From a virus: a DNA stretch of 45,131 nt. The DNA lies in the IMG/VR virus record IMGVR_UViG_3300031578_011240, positions 1 through 45,131 of that record. One strand, 5' to 3'. Positions 4,821-40,748 of the stretch are shown here, in pieces. The translations under genes were made by a program, and so were the position numbers. Below the pieces are notes generated by a model. That model saw nothing but the letters and a program-made list of their open reading frames with translations. It made no database searches and had not been told where the DNA came from. Each line of letters starts with the position of its first letter. Position 1 is the first letter of the stretch.

Positions 4821-5089
4821 TGGATACGACAGTCCTGCAAGGGTTCTTCAATGAAATAGAGTGCATAAGCGCCCAAGAGAAGACGGCCAGCATCAGTGGA
4901 GCAATTCTGCGTGGTGCGGCGAGGCGTGCAGCGAAGCGACCAGTGGAGACTGTGGTCTTGGCGCGCGGTGCCAAGGGTAGGGTCGAGCGCGGCAAAAGGC
5001 GTCACCAAGAGACGATGCGCGCGCTCGATGAGAATAATCCCTACCCGGCCGGCTGGGTGGCGCTTGGAATGCGCCCAAGGAGAGGCTGA
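4820..5089 (+). CDS. Small basic protein with N-terminal recurring tag, 89 aa
   Basis: The N-terminus T-T-V-L-Q-G-F-F-N-E-I-E-C-I-S (nt 4826-4870) closely matches the T-A-M-L-Q-G-F-Y-A-E-M-E-K-I-A segment of the 35705 protein and the T-A-M-W-R-S-F-A-N-E-M segment of the 4232 protein. The rest is arginine/lysine-rich (R-G-A-A-R-R-A-A-K-R-P, G-K-R-R-H-Q-E-T-M-R), predicting a nucleic-acid- or membrane-interacting peptide. TGA and the next ATG overlap (TGATG). No known domain. By inference a small tagged virion or internal protein. Confidence 0.65.
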   Translation: MDTTVLQGFFNEIECISAQEKTASISGAILRGAARRAAKRPVETVVLARGAKGRVERGKRRHQETMRALDENNPYPAGWVALGMRPRRG

Positions 5090-6054
5090 TGGCACCGACC
5101 CCTGAGACTGTAAAATTCTACCTCACGGACCAGAACACCGACCCGATACTTGGCGTCCTCGTGCGCGTGTTCGATGCGGCCGGCGCCGTGTTCCAGACGC
5201 AGGATGTGACTGTGGATGTGGCGGGCGATGCTGTCGCCGAGGTGACGCTCAACGGCGACACCGTCCCGATCAGCTACACCATCCGGATGTCCAAGACCGG
5301 TGTGGCGTTCGATGGCAGCCTGGGGAACGACAGCAAGAGCCCCCAGCTCATCGACGTCTACAGTCCAGCGGCAGGAGCTCCAACGGGGAAGAACGACTTC
5401 GACATCCAGGGCGAGACGTTCACGCTGCCCGCGGCCATAGACGCCCGGCTGTGCCGGGCGAGCGGCTTCTTCAAAGACGCATCCGGCAGGCCCTTGGTCG
5501 GGTTGGACATCAAGATCGTGAACCAGTTCAGGCCGGCCGTGGTGGACGGGTTCGCCATTATGGGAGAGCGCCTAGACCTGCGCACGGATGAGAATGGCTA
5601 CGCCCAGGTGGATCTCTACCGTGGTGGGGAATACTGCGCATGGGTCCAGAGCGTCCAGACGGCGATGGCAGACCCCGAGGGGGCTATCGTCTTCCCGCGC
5701 GATGTCGTGGTCCCCGACCAGACTTCGATCAACTTGGTCGACCTGCTCTTCCCTGTTGTGGGCACCGTAGGGTACACGCCTGCGTCGGTCTCTGTTGCCG
5801 TCGATGGTGAGCAGGAAGTCACTGTCGTTGTGACAGGAACGGACAAGCGCGTGCTAGCAGGCATCGCGCCTAGCGACGTGATCTACACGGTCGACGATCC
5901 CACTATTGCAGTAGTCCGCCTCGGTGCAGATACGGTAACCATTGTCGGCCTGACGGCTGGCTCTACTCAGCTCACTGCCACGCGAAAAGATTTGACGATC
6001 GTCACGGTGCCGACGCCCGCCGCGTTAGCAGTGCTGCCTATCACCGTGACCTAG
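5089..6054 (+). CDS. Multi-domain Ig-like structural protein, 321 aa
   Basis: Three beta domains can be read. Residues ~1-105 look like a carboxypeptidase-regulatory/SpaA-like sandwich (P-I-L-G-V-L-V-R-V-F-D, then I-S-Y-T-I-R-M). Residues ~122-218 are paralogous to the C-terminal domain of the 3288 protein (shared G-R-P-L-V-G-L-D-I-K-I-V-N and T-D-E-N-G-Y-A-Q-V-D-L). The C-terminus (~228-315) is a Big_2-like Ig domain (D-P-T-I-A-V-V, then V-T-I-V-G-L-T-A-G-S-T-Q-L-T-A). Such domains are common on virion surfaces, where they bind carbohydrate or other proteins. The stop (TAG) overlaps the next GTG. Confidence 0.8.
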   Translation: MAPTPETVKFYLTDQNTDPILGVLVRVFDAAGAVFQTQDVTVDVAGDAVAEVTLNGDTVPISYTIRMSKTGVAFDGSLGNDSKSPQLIDVYSPAAGAPTGKNDFDIQGETFTLPAAIDARLCRASGFFKDASGRPLVGLDIKIVNQFRPAVVDGFAIMGERLDLRTDENGYAQVDLYRGGEYCAWVQSVQTAMADPEGAIVFPRDVVVPDQTSINLVDLLFPVVGTVGYTPASVSVAVDGEQEVTVVVTGTDKRVLAGIAPSDVIYTVDDPTIAVVRLGADTVTIVGLTAGSTQLTATRKDLTIVTVPTPAALAVLPITVT

Positions 6055-6362
6055 TGGGCCTGCTCTTTGTTCAAGCATGCCGCCCGTATGGGCAAGGAGA
6101 GCGTCTGTTGTTGGCGTCCGTCCTGCGCCGCGCTGCCTACGATATCGCTCTCTACCGAGCATCTCCTAAGCTGCGGATGCAGAGGCTGGGGGAGGGGGCG
6201 TACCGCTGGATGTTCGACGACACGGCGGAGCACTTTACTTCCTTCTTGAGCATCTGTACTCTTTTGGATCAAGACCCGCAGGTGATTCGTAGGAAAACAC
6301 TGACACTTACGCGAAAAGACGTGCGAAAGTTCGACCTGGTGGACGCACATGGCTGCCTTTAA
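6054..6362 (+). CDS. Small helical protein resembling a widespread bacterial ~100-aa family, 102 aa
   Basis: The GTG start overlaps the upstream TAG. The protein is helical: a first segment (L-A-S-V-L-R-R-A-A-Y-D-I-A-L-Y), then E-G-A-Y-R-W-M-F-D-D, then F-T-S-F-L-S-I-C-T-L-L-D-Q-D-P-Q-V-I-R-R-K. This order, a helix ending in a Trp-containing acidic turn followed by 'F-(S/T)-F/S-x-x-(V/I)-C-x-x-L-x-x-D-P-x-x-(I/L)-R', matches a small uncharacterised protein type I associate with many bacteria and phages. It may have a DNA-binding helical fold. It overlaps the next gene by 14 nt. Regulatory or structural role unknown. Confidence 0.65.
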   Translation: MGLLFVQACRPYGQGERLLLASVLRRAAYDIALYRASPKLRMQRLGEGAYRWMFDDTAEHFTSFLSICTLLDQDPQVIRRKTLTLTRKDVRKFDLVDAHGCL

Positions 6363-8868
6363 GACCGCAGAAATCGAGGCCGCAGTCTCCCAGTTCGTCA
6401 AGGCGAACGTGGTCGAGGAGCGGGACGAACTCGGGCCGGTCAAAGAGGACGTCAAGTTCTCCGAGGTGCTCGAACTCATCTCCTCGACGTTGATCTTCGA
6501 CCCCAACTCCATATTCTACGTCATCTTCTTGGCCACCAACCGGCTGAGCACGGACGTGGCGGCTACCCTCGTGGTGGTTGAGGATATCCAGACCGCGATC
6601 GCAGAGGTCAGCCACCGGACGAAGGACATCACACGCACGACGCTGCTGGGGGATGCGGCTGCGGCCCTGCTCGAGGTGGACACCATTCTCAGCAGTCGTG
6701 ACGCCCTCAGCAACAGCGCATTCAACCGCTACCTGTCCTCCACGAACGCGTTCGTTGGCGTGTCGCTGGAGCCGAACATCAAGTCCGGCTCCGATCTCAT
6801 CAGGCCCCCGCAGAAGGCGCGAACAGACGCACGCACTGCGTTGGCTACGTTGGCCACGAGCTACGCTGACCATCTGGCGGTTCTCGCGCAGCTCCAGGAA
6901 ATGCTGACCGAGTTCAACGCCCTCAACTTGCCCGTCCTCGCTATTCAGGATTCGGTACGGAAGGCGCGGCGCGATCTCAAGTCGCTGCAGGCCACGTTCG
7001 AGGACACGGCTACTACTCGAGACGCCAAGATAGCTGAGTCTCGAGACGCGTACCTCCGGATCACTGCCGGCAAGGCAGTCCTGAATAGCTACAACACGGT
7101 CTCCGACCCTTCCAGCCCACGTCTCCAGTCTACCGCCGCACTCACTGGGCGCGCTGCCATCCCGCTGGGGGACGGCGTGCTGACAAAGGTTGAGGTGTTG
7201 GGCACCAAGTCAGCTCCTTGGGAGATTGACACCGGTACGAATGACGAGTTCAAGGTCGCTGCAGACGGCGCACTCGAAACGACGTATACGATCGTGCCCC
7301 CGACGCGCCCGAGCGTCACAACCTTCTTGGATGAGACTTGGGATGCAACAGGCCCAGCGGTGGCCTACCAAGTCATCGTGACCACGCAGGACAAGCTCGA
7401 GATCGATGGCCTAGCGCCGCGCGTGGTGCTGACTGCTGGTGCGAATCGCACGGCGGCGAACATCGCTTCGGACATCAACACCTGGGCAACGGCCAACAGC
7501 TTCCCGTATACCGCATCATCCCCCGGCGGGTTCGTCAAGATCGAGAAGACGTCGGGCGGAGCGCAGCGCATTCGCATGACGGCGTTCAACGGCACTGATC
7601 GCGCTGCGATACTAGCCACCTACACAGCGCTAGGCTTCTACGAAGGGCAGGAGGACACTGTCGCTGGCGTGACGGCCGCAGAACTTGCTTCGCAGATCAA
7701 TGCGGTCGGCGAGCTTGTAGCTGAGGTGGAGCTGACGCAGTTCGATGAGGGCGTCAGCGGGGCTATGTTCAGCTCCACTGAAATCGACTTGCCTTTGGGG
7801 ACGTTGGTCAGCCTCTCCCACGTTGATGACATCCTTGTCCTGCTCTCGGGTCAAAGTGCGGGAGCGCATCGGATTGTCAGCATTACCCAGCCGGGAGTAG
7901 ACCGCATCACAGTGGCAACAACGCAGCCGTTTGTGCTTGCTGAATCGGGTATCGAGTTCCGCATCATCCGCGAGCTGCTGAAGATTACGTCGCCGGCAAC
8001 GGGACTGACGGGGCAGATTATCGTCGGTGCGGGCAACGCCAACACCACCCTTGGGTTTACCGCTGCCGCCGCCAAGAGCACGACTACAGGATTCGAGGCA
8101 GTCCTAACGGCAGTTCCCCAGGACTTCACTCAGTCTGATGTGGTTGAGGGAGATCTCGTCCGCATTACGATAGGGGTGAATACGACCCAGCATGTGATCT
8201 CGGAGATCACAGGCAGCAACAAGCAGCTGGAAATCACACCAGCGATCGACGTGTCCCTGACGGGGCTGACCTTTCAGATCTTGTCCGCTGCGGCTGTTGC
8301 GTACGAGAACTTCATCGCTGCGGCTGTGGTGTGGGACCTGCTGCGAGAAGCTAGCGATTTCGAGGACGATACTCGAGAGCTCGAGCGTGTGATGAATCCG
8401 TTGTTGGCGAACAAGCGTCCATCCGCTTTCCAGATTGCGGACGCCAACACCGCGGCCACTGCGTTGCTCAGCTTGCTCAATTCCCTCAGCACGGTGCTGA
8501 CCGATTTCGAGGTCAATGCTGTGGGGCGCGTCGACGCGGCGCTGAAGATGCTGCAGGAGCGCGGCATGGACCGCGGGTTCGACACGCTGATGGATGGGGA
8601 GATTGCGAACTTCTTCGGCTTCGACAAAGACGACGCGTCGAGCAGTGCTTTCATGTTGAAATCCATGCGGAATGTGGTGGTGGAGGACCTGCCGCAGTCC
8701 AAGCTAGACGACGATGGAGACGACATTCAGCACGACGAGCTGGTGGTAGACACTGACGCGGAACTCGACTTCAGCGACACGGATAGCGAGGATGAGGACC
8801 TGCACCCGCTTGGCGAGATCCCCGACTTGGATGATACTGACGCGAGCACCCTACGGCAGAGGCTCTAA
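6349..8868 (+). CDS. Large baseplate/tail-associated structural protein, 839 aa
   Basis: The N-terminal ~250 residues are mostly helical (coiled-coil-like around residues 170-240, e.g. S-V-R-K-A-R-R-D-L-K-S-L-Q-A-T-F-E-D). The middle contains a flagellin-IN-like module (~345-430, with T-A-A-N-I-A-S-D-I-N-T-W and a terminal A-L-G-F-Y-E-G) and two copies of a small beta module (~465-535 and ~560-635, G-x-L-V-x-I... H-x-I-x-x-I). A helical region follows. The C-terminal ~70 residues are extremely acidic (D-T-D-A-E-L-D-F-S-D-T-D-S-E-D-E-D). Directly upstream of gp25-like and baseplate J genes, it is probably a baseplate component. Exact T4 equivalent not recognised. Confidence 0.75.
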   Translation: MAAFKTAEIEAAVSQFVKANVVEERDELGPVKEDVKFSEVLELISSTLIFDPNSIFYVIFLATNRLSTDVAATLVVVEDIQTAIAEVSHRTKDITRTTLLGDAAAALLEVDTILSSRDALSNSAFNRYLSSTNAFVGVSLEPNIKSGSDLIRPPQKARTDARTALATLATSYADHLAVLAQLQEMLTEFNALNLPVLAIQDSVRKARRDLKSLQATFEDTATTRDAKIAESRDAYLRITAGKAVLNSYNTVSDPSSPRLQSTAALTGRAAIPLGDGVLTKVEVLGTKSAPWEIDTGTNDEFKVAADGALETTYTIVPPTRPSVTTFLDETWDATGPAVAYQVIVTTQDKLEIDGLAPRVVLTAGANRTAANIASDINTWATANSFPYTASSPGGFVKIEKTSGGAQRIRMTAFNGTDRAAILATYTALGFYEGQEDTVAGVTAAELASQINAVGELVAEVELTQFDEGVSGAMFSSTEIDLPLGTLVSLSHVDDILVLLSGQSAGAHRIVSITQPGVDRITVATTQPFVLAESGIEFRIIRELLKITSPATGLTGQIIVGAGNANTTLGFTAAAAKSTTTGFEAVLTAVPQDFTQSDVVEGDLVRITIGVNTTQHVISEITGSNKQLEITPAIDVSLTGLTFQILSAAAVAYENFIAAAVVWDLLREASDFEDDTRELERVMNPLLANKRPSAFQIADANTAATALLSLLNSLSTVLTDFEVNAVGRVDAALKMLQERGMDRGFDTLMDGEIANFFGFDKDDASSSAFMLKSMRNVVVEDLPQSKLDDDGDDIQHDELVVDTDAELDFSDTDSEDEDLHPLGEIPDLDDTDASTLRQRL

Positions 8869-9209
8869 TGGCGCCCAAACCAAAAGCGAGTGCTGCTAGC
8901 AAACAGAACAAGCTGAATCTCAAGATGCGCGAGATTCTTGGGAATGCCTACTCCTTTGTCCGGGGAAGGGAGTACACTCGGCAAACGGCAAATATCACCT
9001 ATGAGCAGCTGCTCGATCGCGCTATCCATGCGATTGAAGGCACGACTGGGCAGAGCGAGGTGAGGGACACCAAGCTCAATCGGATTAAGAAGATCAAGGA
9101 GGAGATCGGCAAGGCGGTCACTACGGTCAAGGGCAAGCCTCCCGAGTCCTGGAGCATCGAGAATGATTCGCGTGTCACCAAGAAAGACGCGACCAACACG
9201 AAGGAGTAG
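8868..9209 (+). CDS. Small basic protein, 113 aa
   Basis: ATG in a TAATG overlap with the 839-aa gene. The sequence is lysine-rich and helical (L-N-L-K-M-R-E-I-L-G-N-A-Y, then T-K-L-N-R-I-K-K-I-K-E-E-I-G-K-A), with polar ends. There is no known domain, signal peptide or TM. It sits between two baseplate genes in one operon with a 3-nt gap to the next start. A baseplate assembly helper or minor component is the reasonable guess. Confidence 0.7.
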   Translation: MAPKPKASAASKQNKLNLKMREILGNAYSFVRGREYTRQTANITYEQLLDRAIHAIEGTTGQSEVRDTKLNRIKKIKEEIGKAVTTVKGKPPESWSIENDSRVTKKDATNTKE

Positions 9210-35402: not shown

Positions 35403-35726
35403 ATGGCGAAGGCTTGGGCATGGCTAAAGACGAATTGGAAGTGGCTCATCCTGCCTCTCTGGATAGCTTCGGTTGTCCTGGTTTGGATCTTCCGCGGCGG
35501 CGATAAGGCACTCTTCCCCACGTCCGGCACAACGGACGCTGCAGCTGACCAAGCCGTGGCGGCAAAGGACAAGGCACTGGCCGAGTTCCGTGCGAAGCTG
35601 GACGAGCTCTACAAGAAGGCCGAGGCTCAGATGCAGGACGCATCTGAGGAGCAGGTCAAAGAGCTCGAGCAACTCAAGGACAAGCCACTAGATGAGGTCG
35701 CAGCATGGATCGACAACCTTTCGTAA
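35403..35726 (+). CDS. N-TM coiled-coil protein, 107 aa (i-spanin-like)
   Basis: ATG with GGAG ~6 nt upstream. A single membrane anchor at residues ~12-31 (W-L-I-L-P-L-W-I-A-S-V-V-L-V-W-I-F) follows a short basic-aromatic N-terminus. The remaining ~70 residues are a charged coiled-coil (K-D-K-A-L-A-E-F-R-A-K-L-D-E-L-Y-K-K-A). This type II, N-in architecture matches inner-membrane spanin subunits (Rz-like), though it is not proof. No embedded lipoprotein (Rz1) is evident inside it. It overlaps the next gene by 22 nt. Confidence 0.65.
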   Translation: MAKAWAWLKTNWKWLILPLWIASVVLVWIFRGGDKALFPTSGTTDAAADQAVAAKDKALAEFRAKLDELYKKAEAQMQDASEEQVKELEQLKDKPLDEVAAWIDNLS

Positions 35727-36214
35727 AGACCGCCATGCTCCAGGGTTTCTACGCCGAGATGGAGAAGATAGCTGCGGCCCGGGCGTTGGAGAAGCTGGCG
35801 GCGACAGGCCTCAGCCTTGAGGAGCTCGTGAAGCTGGCCGAGGCGGACGCGGAGATCTACCTGCTGATGAAGCAGGCAGGGTTCTTCTCACGCGTGGGGA
35901 GAGCGACCCAGAAGGGCATCGATGCAGCGAAGCCCAAGCTCCGGAACGCCTACAACGCTGCCCAGGTTCGCACCGGAGACTTGATGCAGGGGAGCTTTGG
36001 GCATGGGACTGAGCACGCGATTCAGAAGCTGCACACCACGGCATCCCCCACCAAGGCTGCTCTCGTCTTTGCAACAGATCCTCACGTCCGGAAGGCGGTG
36101 GGCGAGGGTGCACGCAAGGCGGGCAAGAGGGTCAGTACGGGTGCCCAAAGCCTGCTAGAGCGCGCGCGCAATGCAGTGATGCCGTCACCTGGACTACGTC
36201 CGGCCTACGCCTAA
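35705..36214 (+). CDS. Tagged small helical protein, 169 aa
   Basis: ATG at 35705 with GAGGT 6 nt upstream; it overlaps the previous gene by 22 nt. The N-terminal T-A-M-L-Q-G-F-Y-A-E-M-E-K-I-A (nt 35729-35773) is the clearest copy of the recurring tag seen also at 4451 and 4826. The rest is basic, alanine-rich and amphipathic-helical (V-G-R-A-T-Q-K-G-I-D-A-A-K-P-K-L-R, then R-K-A-G-K-R-V-S-T-G-A-Q-S-L-L-E-R). Low complexity, no signal peptide, no TM. The stop overlaps the next ATG (TAATG). Together with the tag and the polyvalent-protein neighbour, an internal or ejected virion protein is the favoured guess. Confidence 0.7.
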   Translation: MDRQPFVKTAMLQGFYAEMEKIAAARALEKLAATGLSLEELVKLAEADAEIYLLMKQAGFFSRVGRATQKGIDAAKPKLRNAYNAAQVRTGDLMQGSFGHGTEHAIQKLHTTASPTKAALVFATDPHVRKAVGEGARKAGKRVSTGAQSLLERARNAVMPSPGLRPAYA

Positions 36215-36507
36215 TGGCTGCCAAAGTCTTCTACCTCGTGCGACTTGAGGACCCGTCCGGCGTGGCGGGGACTGGGATAGTTGCGGAGGGCATCCAGTTC
36301 TCTCAGGGCGACGCCCAGGTGAAGTGGATGAGCAAGTACCCGTGCTTCCAGTGGTGGCCAAAGGGGTGGAAGCACACCGGGCTCATCCACGGACACGGGG
36401 GCAAGACGAAGGTTGTGTGGGCGGACGACGAACCACCGCCCGAGACAGTGGGGGTGGACATCGACGAGGACATCACACCGGCGGTGGAAGACGAAGGGGC
36501 CCCGTAG
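36214..36507 (+). CDS. Conserved small phage/bacterial protein with HGH motif, 97 aa
   Basis: Residues 8-75 follow a pattern I recognise from many bacterial and phage small proteins: L-V-R-x-x-D/E-P-S-G-V-A-G-T-G-x-V-A-E-G, then Q-V-K-W-M-S-K-Y-P-C-F-Q-W-W, then I-H-G-H-G-G-K-T-K-V-V-W. The family is usually annotated as hypothetical; the strand order suggests a small beta-barrel. The C-terminal ~20 residues are acidic. It lies directly before the polyvalent protein with no gap. Function unknown. Confidence 0.7.
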   Translation: MAAKVFYLVRLEDPSGVAGTGIVAEGIQFSQGDAQVKWMSKYPCFQWWPKGWKHTGLIHGHGGKTKVVWADDEPPPETVGVDIDEDITPAVEDEGAP

Positions 36508-39500
36508 ATGATCGGCAAGAGAGCAGAGCCGCCGCCCCCAAAAGGCATCTCCATGAAGGCCTGGGACCGTCATCTTCAGCGTGGTCCCAAGAAGCAGGCG
36601 AACTTCAGTGATGTGTTGCAGGGAGACGGCGGTGACCACATGGGGCGCCTCAAGAAGCGGTCGGCCATCGACGTGGATGACCTCGAGTCGGGCGACCCTG
36701 GTCAGCTGATGCCCCGGCTCCGGCAGATCCACAAGCTCAGTGACGCTGGCATCGATACTCAGGACCTGGACGCCCTGCACGCCAGCCCGGGCGAAGACCT
36801 TCAAGAGGGCGAGAAGGCTTCCAGCTTCGAGTACGCTGCGACAGGACCTAACTCTGGCGGGTCCTTGCGAGAGCCCCCACTGTTTCGCCTGCCCCCGCCC
36901 GCCAAGATCAAAAAGTATGCAGCGGGGCTGGTTCCTGGCGCGCAGGAGAGCTACTACCTCGGGCAGCAGGACAGTGGCGCGTCCGTGGATCCCGAGCTCC
37001 TGGCCATGTCAGGCGTCGGTCAGGGCGCGCACATGGTGAGGACGTCCAAGAGGCTGGCCGATAGGGTCAATCAGCGCGTGGCGAGAAACGCGATGGCTGC
37101 CACGCCCATGCAGCAGCCACAGCAGATGATGCCCGTTACGACTCGGGCCAGCCTCGTCAAGAACCTGCTCGGCATGTTGCTAGGCGGCAAAGAAAAGACT
37201 GGAGCCATTGAGCCGCACCAGGCACGCAAAGGCACGCCCATTACGGAGAACTGGCGTGAGTTCAAGACGGCACTGAAGCCTGGTGATATCGTCTTCACGA
37301 AGAGCCTGAAGATCCGGACGCAGACAACTGGGCAGGCAGCTGCTGATGCGCTGGTACCGACCGTTGCGCTGTACGACATGGCGACCAAAGCAAAGCATCC
37401 TGGCTGGGTGCATGGCGCTATGTACTTGGGCAAAGGACGGATCGGGCACCTGGCTAACGAGGAGCTCAAACGGGGCAAGCCCGTCGTGAGGACGCCGACG
37501 ATCAGCAAGGGAAGTCTCGAGCTGTTCCACAAGAACGACCAGTTCGATGTGTTGGCGGTGCGTCCTCGTAGAGATATGACGGCGGCTGTTCAGGAAATGG
37601 ATAGGATCACCGCTAAGCCAACGGTCGTTCCCATGCCCAAGTACGTGAAGAACTTCCTGGCTACTGGGTTCCGGGCCACAGGTGGGAAGAGTCCTACTGA
37701 CGCCGTGTGCATTGGCGTAATTGGCGCGGCGATGAAGGACACCCTGCCCACCAAACGATCGCCGTATCGACTGCGCCCCAAGGATATCTTGGAAGATCGA
37801 CGGATCGGCCACCTTATCGGCTACCAGCCGAAGTCGAAGGTGGCCTCGGTCGAGGACCTGGAGTGGTTGGAGAAGTTCGCTGCGGCTGAGAAGCCGCAGG
37901 GGATCAAGTTCGTGTACCTCAACACGGGCGGCGGGCATCGAGCGCAGGCCAACGCTCTGGTCGAAGCTGCACAGAAGAAGGGGATCTCTGCCGAGGCAGT
38001 CGACTGGGGAGATAATTTCGGGAAGGGCCCGCATGCGAAGAATTACGAGAAGGCCTACACCGATATGCTCCACGGGAAGCGCAGCCAGTTTAGTCTAGCT
38101 GTGCCGGCTGCCAAGTTCAGCTACCTGGGGACGGATAAGGACAAGCTGCGGAAGTGGGTGGGGAAGAACAAAGATCAAGCCATCGTCGTGGCGATGGAGC
38201 ACCTCCGCAAGGAGTTCGACGACATCGATCATCCAGTGCACATCCTGCACTCAGACCCAGTGAAGTGGCCCTTTGCTCACGAGGGAAGCAATACCCCCAA
38301 CAGGATCGACATAGGAACCCCGAACGTCTTGCGGGCGTTGGACAAGAAGAGGGGCATCCCCATTCCCAACGTCCCCGTGTCGCAAAACGTTTTGCGACCG
38401 AAGCGACGGGGAAGGCTGCTAGAACGGGGGAAATTCAACGTCACGGTCAGCGCAGGCTCCCTGGGCCCGGAAGTCGTGCCGATCGCAGAGCAGGTACTGA
38501 AGTCTGGCTTGCCAGCGAACGCAGCTGTTCACGTGATCACGGGCAAGAACAGGGCCGCGCTACGGCAGCTGGGCGCGCTGGCCAAGAAAGACCCGCGCCT
38601 GGTGCCACATGGTTACGCACCGCTCGCCAACATGATGCGAGAGGCCGACCTGAACGTCATCAGGACCCACGGCACCACGCTGGCAGAGACCGTCGCCGCC
38701 GGAAAGCCAGCGGTCTACTACGGACCTAACGTCGGCTTCCTTCGGTCCGGCCAGGGAGACCTGACCAAACGGACTGCTCGCTGGGCAGGGCAGAGGCTGG
38801 GGCAGCCCGCCGCCATTGGGATGGAGAACGTGACGGGGGCTGTGGACAAGGCTGTGGGCAACATGCCTCGGCTCAAGCAGCGAGCTCGCCTAGAGAAGAA
38901 GCGGATGGGAGATCCGGCCGCGGCTGCAGTGGACAGCATCATGAAGCCGCGGCCGGGCTACGTGCTGGAGAAGCGCGCGGCGGTCGACGAGACTCCTGAC
39001 CCGTCGAAGCACAAGCTCCAGGGACACACCGAGGTTCAGGGCCTGCCCATCGCCATCGAGAACCGCAAGGGCTCGGTCCGCAAGGGTAAGGACGCCGACG
39101 GCAACGAGTGGCGCACCAAGATGAAGCACCCCTACGGCTACCTGAAGGGCACCAAGGGGGCCGACGGCGAGGAGGTCGACTGCTACGTCGGCCCGAAGAA
39201 GGACGCCAAGGACGCCTTCGTGGTCCACCAGAAGGACAAGGACACCGGCGCGTACGACGAAGACAAGGTGATGCTTGGTTTCCCCAGCAAGCGGGCAGCC
39301 AAGGAAGCCTTTTTGGCCCACTACGACAGCCCCAAGTTTCTGGGGCCGGTGGCCAAGGTCTCGGTGGACCGGCTGCGCGAGCTCGTCGAGAGCAAGGGGA
39401 AGCTCACCAAGATCTCCCAGGCCAGTTGGGCATCTCTGCTCGCTGAGATCCAGGACATGGAGAAGGGCGCCGCGGGGGCGCTTGGTCAGCAGCAGCTGTT

Positions 39501-40230
39501 GCAGCGCTTCGGCCGGCTGACCAACGCTTTGGAAGCGCAGGGGACGCCCATCGACACCCATAAGCGCATCCTGATACCCAAGCGGGTGCTGAGCGAAGGG
39601 GACCTCGGTCGGCTCGGGTTCCAGGGGTCGCTGTCTGGCGTGCCCGAGGCCGGGCAGACGCGGTTCAGCAGCTTCCGCAATCCCAAAAATCCCCACCACC
39701 TGCATGAGCACGGCGATGCCTGGACCATGCACAAGGACGAGCACGCACCTCCCACCATTAGATCGGGAAGCGATCTGCTCGCACGGGCCGGACAGGTGGC
39801 CGACATGGCCAAGGCCGTGCCGCACATCGTGATGGAGGGCGCGCCGGCGACTTACCAGTACGCTCGAGGCCGGCTCAAGGGCGCCCGGGGGATGCGGGAG
39901 CGCATCGAGGGGTCAGCGCAGGCAGGGCAGCTCAAGAAACGCCTCCAGCGGTGGGCTCCGTCCGATGGCGTGGACAAGGCAGCGGAGGCATCTCAGCCCG
40001 TCTCTGCGGACGTCAAGAAGAGGGAGCGGGCAAGGCTCATACGCAAGGCTGGACCGGCTGCTGGGGCGCTGCTAGGCGCTGGAGTCGGCTCTCTGCTCGG
40101 CGCTCGTAAGGGCAAGCTGTTGCGTGGCGCCGTAGCAGGCCTGGGCACAGGGGCCACGCTGGGCTGGGTACCTGACATCGTGGCGAGCGGCCGGGAGGCG
40201 GTCAAGCGATACAAGAGGAAGGTCGGATGA
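36508..40230 (+). CDS. Polyvalent-type multi-enzyme protein: papain-like, glycosyltransferase and pyrophosphatase-like domains, 1240 aa
   Basis: Four regions can be read. Residues ~255-440 resemble a permuted papain/NlpC-P60 (YiiX-like) domain: L-K-P-G-D-I-V-F (256-263), His302 in W-V-H-G-A-M-Y-L-G, Cys401 in D-A-V-C-I-G-V-I-G-A-A. Residues ~466-785 match MGDG-synthase/MurG (GT28) enzymes: L-N-T-G-G-G-H-R-A-Q-A-N-A-L (471-484), S-A-G-S-L-G-P-E-V (648-656), then M-R-E-A-D-L-N-V-I-R-T-H-G-T-T-L-A-E-T (710-728). Residues ~830-965 fit the inorganic-pyrophosphatase-like domain of phage polyvalent proteins: Y-G-Y-L-K-G-T-K-G-A-D-G-E-E-V-D (876-891), Y-D-E-D-K-V-M-L-G-F (916-925). A Gly-zipper hydrophobic region lies at ~1180-1222. 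Polyvalent proteins are thought to be packaged and ejected into the host; activities here are unproven. Confidence 0.8.
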   Translation: MIGKRAEPPPPKGISMKAWDRHLQRGPKKQANFSDVLQGDGGDHMGRLKKRSAIDVDDLESGDPGQLMPRLRQIHKLSDAGIDTQDLDALHASPGEDLQEGEKASSFEYAATGPNSGGSLREPPLFRLPPPAKIKKYAAGLVPGAQESYYLGQQDSGASVDPELLAMSGVGQGAHMVRTSKRLADRVNQRVARNAMAATPMQQPQQMMPVTTRASLVKNLLGMLLGGKEKTGAIEPHQARKGTPITENWREFKTALKPGDIVFTKSLKIRTQTTGQAAADALVPTVALYDMATKAKHPGWVHGAMYLGKGRIGHLANEELKRGKPVVRTPTISKGSLELFHKNDQFDVLAVRPRRDMTAAVQEMDRITAKPTVVPMPKYVKNFLATGFRATGGKSPTDAVCIGVIGAAMKDTLPTKRSPYRLRPKDILEDRRIGHLIGYQPKSKVASVEDLEWLEKFAAAEKPQGIKFVYLNTGGGHRAQANALVEAAQKKGISAEAVDWGDNFGKGPHAKNYEKAYTDMLHGKRSQFSLAVPAAKFSYLGTDKDKLRKWVGKNKDQAIVVAMEHLRKEFDDIDHPVHILHSDPVKWPFAHEGSNTPNRIDIGTPNVLRALDKKRGIPIPNVPVSQNVLRPKRRGRLLERGKFNVTVSAGSLGPEVVPIAEQVLKSGLPANAAVHVITGKNRAALRQLGALAKKDPRLVPHGYAPLANMMREADLNVIRTHGTTLAETVAAGKPAVYYGPNVGFLRSGQGDLTKRTARWAGQRLGQPAAIGMENVTGAVDKAVGNMPRLKQRARLEKKRMGDPAAAAVDSIMKPRPGYVLEKRAAVDETPDPSKHKLQGHTEVQGLPIAIENRKGSVRKGKDADGNEWRTKMKHPYGYLKGTKGADGEEVDCYVGPKKDAKDAFVVHQKDKDTGAYDEDKVMLGFPSKRAAKEAFLAHYDSPKFLGPVAKVSVDRLRELVESKGKLTKISQASWASLLAEIQDMEKGAAGALGQQQLLQRFGRLTNALEAQGTPIDTHKRILIPKRVLSEGDLGRLGFQGSLSGVPEAGQTRFSSFRNPKNPHHLHEHGDAWTMHKDEHAPPTIRSGSDLLARAGQVADMAKAVPHIVMEGAPATYQYARGRLKGARGMRERIEGSAQAGQLKKRLQRWAPSDGVDKAAEASQPVSADVKKRERARLIRKAGPAAGALLGAGVGSLLGARKGKLLRGAVAGLGTGATLGWVPDIVASGREAVKRYKRKVG

Positions 40231-40748
40231 GAGCGCTGGTCATAGTTCTTGTAGTTTCCCTTACATTTGCTCCGGTGGCCTGGGCGGCCGCGCCCTGCAC
40301 CAAGCAGATCTACACCGACGTCAAGGCGGAGCCACGATACGACTGCCCCGGCCCGGGAGAGGACGCCCTGGTGCCGCGGCTCGAGCTCAAAACCTCGGTA
40401 GCACTCGAGCTCGGCAAGAAGGCCCCTTGGGCAGGCATCCTGATGGACAAGAACCGGGTGCTGACGCTGGGGCTCCGTATCAAGGCACTCCGCAGGATCC
40501 GATACCTGGAGATGAAGAGCGCGCTCGAGCAGCGGGAGGCCGAGCGGAAGTTCGAGGCAGCCCAGTTCCAGGCCACGCTTGGCCTGCGTACCTCCCAGCG
40601 GGACACCTACAAGGAGCAGGTCAAGGTGCTCCAAGAAGAGGTGATCCGTTCCCGCAAGTGGTACCGCTCCCCCTCCCTGTGGTTCGCCATCGGCGTCGTG
40701 GTCACGGCCGCCGGCGCGACTGCGCTAGCCATCGGGCTTCGTAAGTAG
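40227..40748 (+). CDS. Signal-peptide, coiled-coil, C-terminal-TM protein, 173 aa (u-spanin-like)
   Basis: The ATG overlaps the upstream TGA by 4 nt. Residues 1-~20 are a clear export signal (A-L-V-I-V-L-V-V-S-L-T-F-A-P-V-A-W-A) followed by A-A-P-C; the proline before the Cys makes it a poor lipobox. Residues ~85-145 are a coiled coil (R-R-I-R-Y-L-E-M-K-S-A-L-E-Q-R-E-A-E-R). A C-terminal TM lies at ~149-170 (L-W-F-A-I-G-V-V-V-T-A-A-G-A-T-A-L-A-I-G-L), ending R-K. Exported N-terminus, helical ectodomain and C-terminal TM are the layout of unimolecular spanins, which join outer and inner membranes at lysis; without a true lipobox this is tentative. Last gene before the terminator. Confidence 0.65.
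   Translation: MRALVIVLVVSLTFAPVAWAAAPCTKQIYTDVKAEPRYDCPGPGEDALVPRLELKTSVALELGKKAPWAGILMDKNRVLTLGLRIKALRRIRYLEMKSALEQREAERKFEAAQFQATLGLRTSQRDTYKEQVKVLQEEVIRSRKWYRSPSLWFAIGVVVTAAGATALAIGLRK

What the first reader, a model, noticed from the sequence alone, without database searches (positions are those of the whole stretch)
36508..40230. Phage polyvalent protein with an embedded MurG/MGDG-synthase-type glycosyltransferase
One reading frame joins a permuted papain/NlpC-P60-like domain (His302, Cys401), a GT-B glycosyltransferase of the GT28/MGDG-synthase type (G-G-G-H-R-A at 474-479; G-T-T-L-A-E-T at 722-728), an inorganic-pyrophosphatase-like domain of the phage polyvalent class, and a glycine-zipper hydrophobic C-terminus. 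Polyvalent proteins are known to combine unrelated enzyme domains and to be delivered with the DNA. A GT28 enzyme inside one is, to my knowledge, unusual. Inference: it may modify a lipid- or wall-linked sugar acceptor of the host during or just after ejection, or act in superinfection control, while the other domains process wall peptides and pyrophosphate.
Basis: partly seen in the sequence, partly recalled or inferred. Interest (0 to 1): 0.85.

Follow-up and report, generated by a model that had tools for sequence, protein, structure and literature searches.

The report
Swappable sugar-transferase in phage multi-enzyme proteins
A large multi-enzyme protein in the late (virion) genes of an uncultured bacterial virus contains a real sugar-transferase-type enzyme related to cell-wall and membrane-lipid sugar transferases, and in relatives the same enzyme is moved between unrelated partner proteins and even exchanged between two near-identical viruses, which suggests it is a cargo enzyme used against the host cell.

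Summary
Window 36508-40230 (+) is one intact 1240-aa frame: disordered N-terminus, papain/LRAT-like domain (230-444, weak), GT-B domain of the GT28 type (455-821), phage-type InPase (838-959, certain) and a glycine-rich C-terminus. The GT assignment rests on PDB profile hits (diacylglycerol glucosyltransferase E 7e-5, MGD1 E 2e-4), NCBIfam/Pfam hits in relatives, and an AlphaFold model matching GT-B enzymes (Z about 20).

The new part came from relatives. Seven further uncultured phage contigs carry this GT, one copy per record searched, inside differently built proteins: LigD-type ligase+GT+papain-like; InPase+GT; InPase+C39+GT; zincin-like+GT; NTase-like+GT. It occupies at least four places, mostly among late genes. 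In two near-identical phages (99-100% DNA) the GT was exchanged for a 67%-identical allele with breakpoints at the domain edges. Searches of 50,697 phage records and 84,980 prokaryote genomes found no clear relative. A K-x-A motif marks most module junctions.

Best reading: a virion-delivered, mobile effector glycosyltransferase. Donor-side motifs conserved; acceptor unknown. New variant of a known kind (polyvalent proteins).

The parts
36508..40230 (+). 1240-aa polyvalent ORF (P0001), 'slot B' of the late gene cluster
   Evidence: slot by synteny with G001 and G002
36508..37194 (+). residues 1-229, low-complexity N-terminal part; pieces shared with the same-slot proteins of G001 (581 aa) and G002 (286 aa)
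37195..37839 (+). residues 230-444, papain/LRAT-like domain (H302, C401); relative at the C-terminus of the G001 1081-aa protein (about 40% id)
   Evidence: family assignment weak:
37870..38970 (+). residues 455-821, GT-B glycosyltransferase module, GT28/MurG/diacylglycerol-glucosyltransferase type
39019..39384 (+). residues 838-959, phage-type inorganic pyrophosphatase (PF18823)
   Evidence: (E 1e-45)
39487..39831 (+). residues 994-1108, unnamed module ending WTMHKDEHAP; stand-alone in L002, a similar stretch N-terminal to the GT in L051/L063 (by eye), and in a gene near the GT gene in L062
40033..40215 (+). residues 1176-1236, glycine-rich hydrophobic C-terminus, conserved in the G001 same-slot protein
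37867..37884 (+). junction motif LEKFAA between the papain-like and GT modules
38965..38982 (+). junction motif LEKRAA between GT and InPase
39457..39474 (+). junction motif MEKGAA after InPase
39970..39987 (+). junction motif VDKAAE before the glycine-rich C-terminus
36214..36507 (+). upstream neighbour gene (PHROG 7499, unknown), left edge of slot B
   Evidence: synteny
40227..40748 (+). downstream neighbour gene, right edge of slot B, conserved in G001, G002 and L059

Best explanation
The protein is a late-gene polyvalent protein whose central module is a GT28-like GT-B glycosyltransferase used as an exchangeable effector. Shown by sequence: the GT-B fold (predicted) and GT28-type motifs, purifying selection, location among virion genes, one copy per record searched, shuffling among carriers with other enzyme modules, and exchange of the GT cassette between near-identical phages. 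Inferred: the carrier is packaged in the head, probably cut at K-x-A junctions into separate enzymes by the maturation protease, and enters the host with the DNA; there the GT transfers a sugar from a nucleotide-sugar, probably a UDP-sugar (conserved donor-side residues such as E727), to a host or defence-related acceptor. A membrane- or wall-linked lipid is the leading guess, from the nearest solved relatives (diacylglycerol glucosyltransferase, MGD1, MurG) and from its pairing with an LRAT-like domain in two carriers. The exchange of alleles fits selection to track a variable host target. InPase would clear pyrophosphate or hydrolyse nucleotide derivatives.
For: GT28/GT-B: profile vs PDB E 6.7e-5 (9wde) and 1.8e-4 (4wyi); PF04101 in all four searched phages at E 5e-5 to 5e-7, two over the cut-off; murG/diglucosyl-DAG synthase models E 1e-6 / 2e-7 in relatives; AF2 model pLDDT 70 matching MurG, MGD1 and many GT1 enzymes, VIA Z about 20 over about 320 residues. 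Function kept: 68 invariant positions over eight sequences, dN/dS about 0.24. Mobility: five distinct kinds of carrier at four or more loci; cassette exchange between L051 and L063, 98-100% identical outside two stretches, with L061 from another sample agreeing with L063. Virion link: slots A and B lie among tail/baseplate genes, others beside the fused RNA polymerase or terminase; enzymes including RNAP, UDG and DNA ligase are in purified particles of Arash, a nearest isolated relative by RNAP. Junction motif: 13 observed vs about 0.6 expected, 12 at module edges; h-x-K-x-A enriched in late genes 25 vs 5.8, R-control 7 vs 6.8.
Against: No donor, acceptor or activity is shown. The fold is also used by hydrolases and epimerases (PseG weak hit; WecB-type epimerases). 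Model residues 131-185 (P0001 about 581-635) have pLDDT below 50. Virion packaging and cleavage are inferred from location and from a related phage only. The junction motif was defined on the same proteins it was counted in, is missing at the L059 GT junction and absent from two slot-B relatives. The putative maturation protease was recognised only by eye and matched no S78 model.
Confidence: 0.6

Rival explanations
1. The GT glycosylates phage DNA (or another phage component) as anti-restriction, and the fusion merely co-packages it.
For: GT-B enzymes glycosylate phage DNA in T4 (own knowledge); one carrier joins the GT to a LigD-type DNA ligase.
Against: No thymidylate-synthase/hydroxymethylase homologue in the four searched records (records are fragments); sequence relatives are lipid/wall enzymes, not DNA GTs; a late gene product carried in the virion fits DNA modification during replication poorly (inference).
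Confidence: 0.1
2. The module is a GT-B nucleotide-sugar hydrolase or epimerase that depletes a UDP-sugar or a nucleotide signal, working with InPase rather than transferring sugar.
For: Weak PseG hits in two carriers; WecB-type epimerases among fold matches; InPase in three carriers including the window; polyvalent InPases were proposed to process nucleotide-like substrates (PMC5512222).
Against: Best sequence relatives are transferases; GxGH and the GT28 C-terminal motif are kept.
Confidence: 0.15
3. Inactive or structural GT relic used as a folding/packaging scaffold within a virion protein.
For: Glycine loop of the C-terminal half varies (SAGSLG, SSGSLG, SGGVMG).
Against: Strong conservation of donor-side residues, dN/dS about 0.24, retention while moving between carriers.
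Confidence: 0.08
4. A refinement of the main reading: the papain-like domain and GT act together on one lipid substrate (LRAT-like acyl chemistry plus sugar transfer), a two-step lipid-modifying unit.
For: They are adjacent in the window and in G001, in opposite order; weak LRAT/HRASLS hits.
Against: Papain-like family unproven; the other six GT carriers lack a detected relative of it.
Confidence: 0.15

Closest known systems
Phage polyvalent proteins (Iyer et al. 2017, PMC5512222)
   Same: Many unrelated enzyme domains in one large phage protein, encoded near virion genes; phage-type InPase.
   Different: No glycosyltransferase is named in the held text of that paper; here the GT recurs in differently built carriers and is exchanged as a cassette.
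GT28 family (MurG, MGDG synthase MGD1, processive diacylglycerol glucosyltransferase)
   Same: GT-B fold, GxGH N-terminal loop, C-terminal G-T-T-x-A-E-x-x-A-x-G-K-P motif.
   Different: Remote (far below equivalog cut-offs), embedded in polyvalent proteins, acceptor unknown.
Portal/minor head protein InPase fusions (PB1-like phages, BcepF1; PDB 9b41)
   Same: InPase module about 44% identical.
   Different: Those are portal or minor head protein fusions in which no GT or papain-like relative was found.
Salmonella phage Arash and Vibrio phages D69/D148/D181
   Same: Closest database phages by the fused beta/beta' RNA polymerase and, weakly, one late protein; Arash particles carry many enzymes.
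   Different: No GT module relative detected.

Membership tests
Phage polyvalent proteins | Two or more unrelated enzymatic domains in one polypeptide | tested here: met
   GT + InPase in one frame
Phage polyvalent proteins | Encoded in the virion gene neighbourhood | tested here: met
   baseplate/tail cluster, synteny
Phage polyvalent proteins | Packaged and injected | not testable with these tools
   inferred; only a related phage has proteomics
GT28 glycosyltransferases | GT-B fold | tested here: met
   predicted model
GT28 glycosyltransferases | PF04101 C-terminal domain over its curated cut-off | tested here: inconclusive
   window 14.7-18.3 bits vs 22; relatives up to 25.7
GT28 glycosyltransferases | GxGH loop and conserved Glu of the donor pocket | tested here: met
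   G474, G476, H477, E727 invariant in eight sequences; role of these residues from own knowledge of MurG/MGD1
GT28 glycosyltransferases | Transfer from a UDP-sugar to a lipid acceptor | not testable with these tools
   needs assay
MurG (equivalog) | NCBIfam TIGR01133 score of 250 bits | tested here: not met
   at most 29 bits in the carriers tested
Phage-type InPase (PF18823) | Model over cut-off | tested here: met
   155 bits vs 26.8
Peptidase C92 (YiiX/YaeF) | PF05708 match | tested here: inconclusive
   no match in any of four records
LRAT/NlpC-P60 superfamily | Family profile over cut-off and papain-like fold | tested here: inconclusive
   sub-threshold hits at the His motif only; fold prediction failed, pLDDT 37

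The most novel reading that the evidence does not exclude
A virion-delivered 'serotype-conversion' type enzyme: the phage carries a ready-made glycosyltransferase into the cell, released from its carrier by maturation cleavage, to remodel an envelope lipid or disarm a defence component immediately on infection, with alleles exchanged between otherwise near-identical phages to match different hosts.
Probability: 0.25. Interest if true: 0.85.

Novelty: new variant of a known kind. Interest (0 to 1): 0.66.

Why it matters
It would add sugar transfer to the chemistry that phages appear to bring into a cell with their DNA. It also gives a natural experiment: two nearly identical phage contigs that, over the stretch compared, differ mainly at one effector module and its neighbouring locus. 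If the acceptor were found it would show what host molecule such a phage must change early in infection. The K-x-A junctions make it testable whether polyvalent proteins are cut into single enzymes by the head maturation protease.

Tried and rejected
Whole-protein, whole-GT and neighbour-gene single-sequence scans of viral contigs gave little or nothing; only short or aligned queries worked. Genome-contig scans with two GT alignments found no relative. Peptidase C92 and S78 prohead protease models found nothing; the maturation-protease candidate has no PDB relative by profile. DNA-modification route by thymidylate synthase: none. AlphaFold of the papain-like domain failed, so no fold search was run on it. 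Extension of the INPHARED InPase hits into residues 727-830 (BcepF1, Maja) was judged alignment overrun, since the GT alone finds no such phage. The S. aureus phage record hit (E 0.01) was set aside as likely host sequence; not checked. Literature searches for GT28 or glycosyltransferase in polyvalent or virion proteins found nothing specific. Comparing only the listed 50 rows, the VIA table shows GT1-type and not GT28 entries; this was not taken as evidence against GT28 because sequence profiles favour it.

Full report
OBSERVATION. The frame 36508-40230 (+) is a single ATG-initiated ORF of 1240 aa. Pfam finds InPase PF18823 at 838-959 (E 1e-45) and a sub-threshold Glyco_tran_28_C at 655-737 (E 0.03). 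PDB search by sequence gives an InPase-bearing portal protein (9b41, E 4e-25) and a weak diacylglycerol glucosyltransferase (9wde, E 0.03).

RELATIVES. Scans with short or aligned GT queries found seven further contigs with the GT (L003, L004, L051, L059, L060, L061/L063 counted below, L062); L061 is a shorter contig matching L063 at 99-100% and is counted with it. Architectures: window N-papain/LRAT-like-GT-InPase-DEHAP module-glycine-rich tail; G001 (L003) LigD phosphoesterase-ATP DNA ligase-OB-GT-papain-like; G002 (L004) InPase-GT; L059 InPase-peptidase C39-unnamed-GT; L051 and L061/L063 zincin-like (FHDLGHVID, by eye)-DEHAP-like module (by eye)-GT; L060 nucleotidyltransferase-like (by eye)-GT-domain shared with a G002 neighbour protein; L062 nucleotidyltransferase-like (by eye)-GT. 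Each of the eight records searched has one GT copy; the records may be fragments.

PLACES. Window, G001 and G002 are colinear over the window. In G001 and G002 the GT sits in slot A, just before the gene orthologous to window 5089-6054 in the tail/baseplate cluster; the window has no such protein there. In the window it sits in slot B (between 36214-36507 and 40227-40748); the same slot holds a 581-aa InPase protein without GT in G001 and a 286-aa stub in G002. L059 again uses slot B. L051/L063 use a place next to the fused RNA polymerase, L060 one upstream of the terminase, L062 another near a gene matching the G001 100-kb region. So the module moves while being kept once per record.

CASSETTE EXCHANGE. 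L051 and L063 are 95-100% (mostly 99-100%) identical in DNA over the shared sequence of the 17-kb loci, except in two stretches: an upstream region around 5551-6900 (L051 coordinates) and the GT module (about 7980-9110), where identity falls to 58-82% per 150-base window. The GT proteins are 67% identical, dS about 1.1, dN/dS about 0.24. The breakpoints lie at the start (after KAMFGKTAGKP) and end (IMKSRKEYDT) of the GT. L061, from a third sample by its contig name, matches L063, which argues against an assembly artefact on the L063 side; the L051 side rests on one contig.

WHAT THE GT IS. An alignment of four modules hits PDB diacylglycerol glucosyltransferase (E 7e-5), MGD1 (E 2e-4) and MurG (E 0.01). 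NCBIfam murG and diglucosyl-diacylglycerol synthase models match carriers at up to 5e-7 and 2e-7, far below their equivalog cut-offs. The model (pLDDT 70) matches GT-B enzymes broadly, GT1 as well as GT28, so the fold says GT-B and the sequence says GT28-like. Part of the N-terminal half of the model is of low confidence and the acceptor cannot be read from the sequence.

THE PAPAIN-LIKE DOMAIN. It has one relative (about 40% identical, G001), with L-K-P-G-D, H302 and C401 conserved. Hits to LRAT (E 0.05; E 0.003 in a single-record search), NlpC/P60 (0.2) and HRASLS2 (E 1) fall on the His motif. A permuted NlpC/P60-LRAT fold is plausible, not shown. A wall-peptide role is not supported.

JUNCTIONS. 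The pattern h-[EKRDV]-K-x-A-[AES] occurs 13 times in the window, G001 and G002 carriers (about 0.6 expected after shuffling), 12 of them within 20 residues of a module edge. The pattern was drawn up from these proteins, so the count is inflated. In carriers not used to define it, K-x-A precedes the GT in L060, L062, L051 and L063 but not in L059 (background 9-15%). A looser form is enriched in late proteins of G001 (25 vs 5.8) and less in replication/RNAP proteins (9 vs 3.9), with R and reversed controls at or below expectation. Maturation cleavage at a defined motif is known for giant phages (SPN3US, A-x-E, PMC10052503). Cleavage here is a hypothesis; the motif could instead be a shuffling linker.

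CONTEXT. The group has family A DNA polymerase, primase, DnaB-like helicase, RecA-like protein and UDG, and a fused beta/beta' RNA polymerase and terminase. By RNA polymerase the nearest isolates are Vibrio phages D69/D148/D181 and Salmonella phage Arash, and Arash particles contain RNA polymerase, DNA ligase, UDG and other enzymes (PMC10585845). This makes packaging of the polyvalent carrier plausible; the authors of that paper note that such enzymes may also be carry-over.

CONCLUSION. Confirmed GT-B/GT28-like module in a phage polyvalent protein; the interesting fact is its mobility and allelic exchange. The mechanism beyond nucleotide-sugar use is inference.

Noticed in passing
L060:12046-13851: The protein similar to the presumed head-maturation protease (G001 80638-83019, recognised by eye only) carries an InPase domain fused at residues 394-519.
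   Followed up: no
G001 late genes (L037, L041), G002 and window 35705-36214: Short motif like FFDELEKIA / LxKLA recurs in many late proteins and is enriched over shuffles and controls; possible packaging or cleavage signal.
   Followed up: partly
window:40784-42181 (-): CCA-adding/poly(A) polymerase-type tRNA nucleotidyltransferase with HD domain, next to the late genes.
   Followed up: no
L051:5551-6900: The gene just upstream of the GT carrier is also replaced between the otherwise near-identical L051 and L063 (about 49% identical proteins), a second variable locus.
   Followed up: partly
L003:6386-9628: LigD-type 3'-phosphoesterase and ATP-dependent DNA ligase fused to the GT and papain-like domains in one phage protein.
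   Followed up: partly
window:31211-34936: 1241-aa protein with a right-handed beta-helix match, possibly a tail spike, well conserved only in its N-terminal half among relatives.
   Followed up: no
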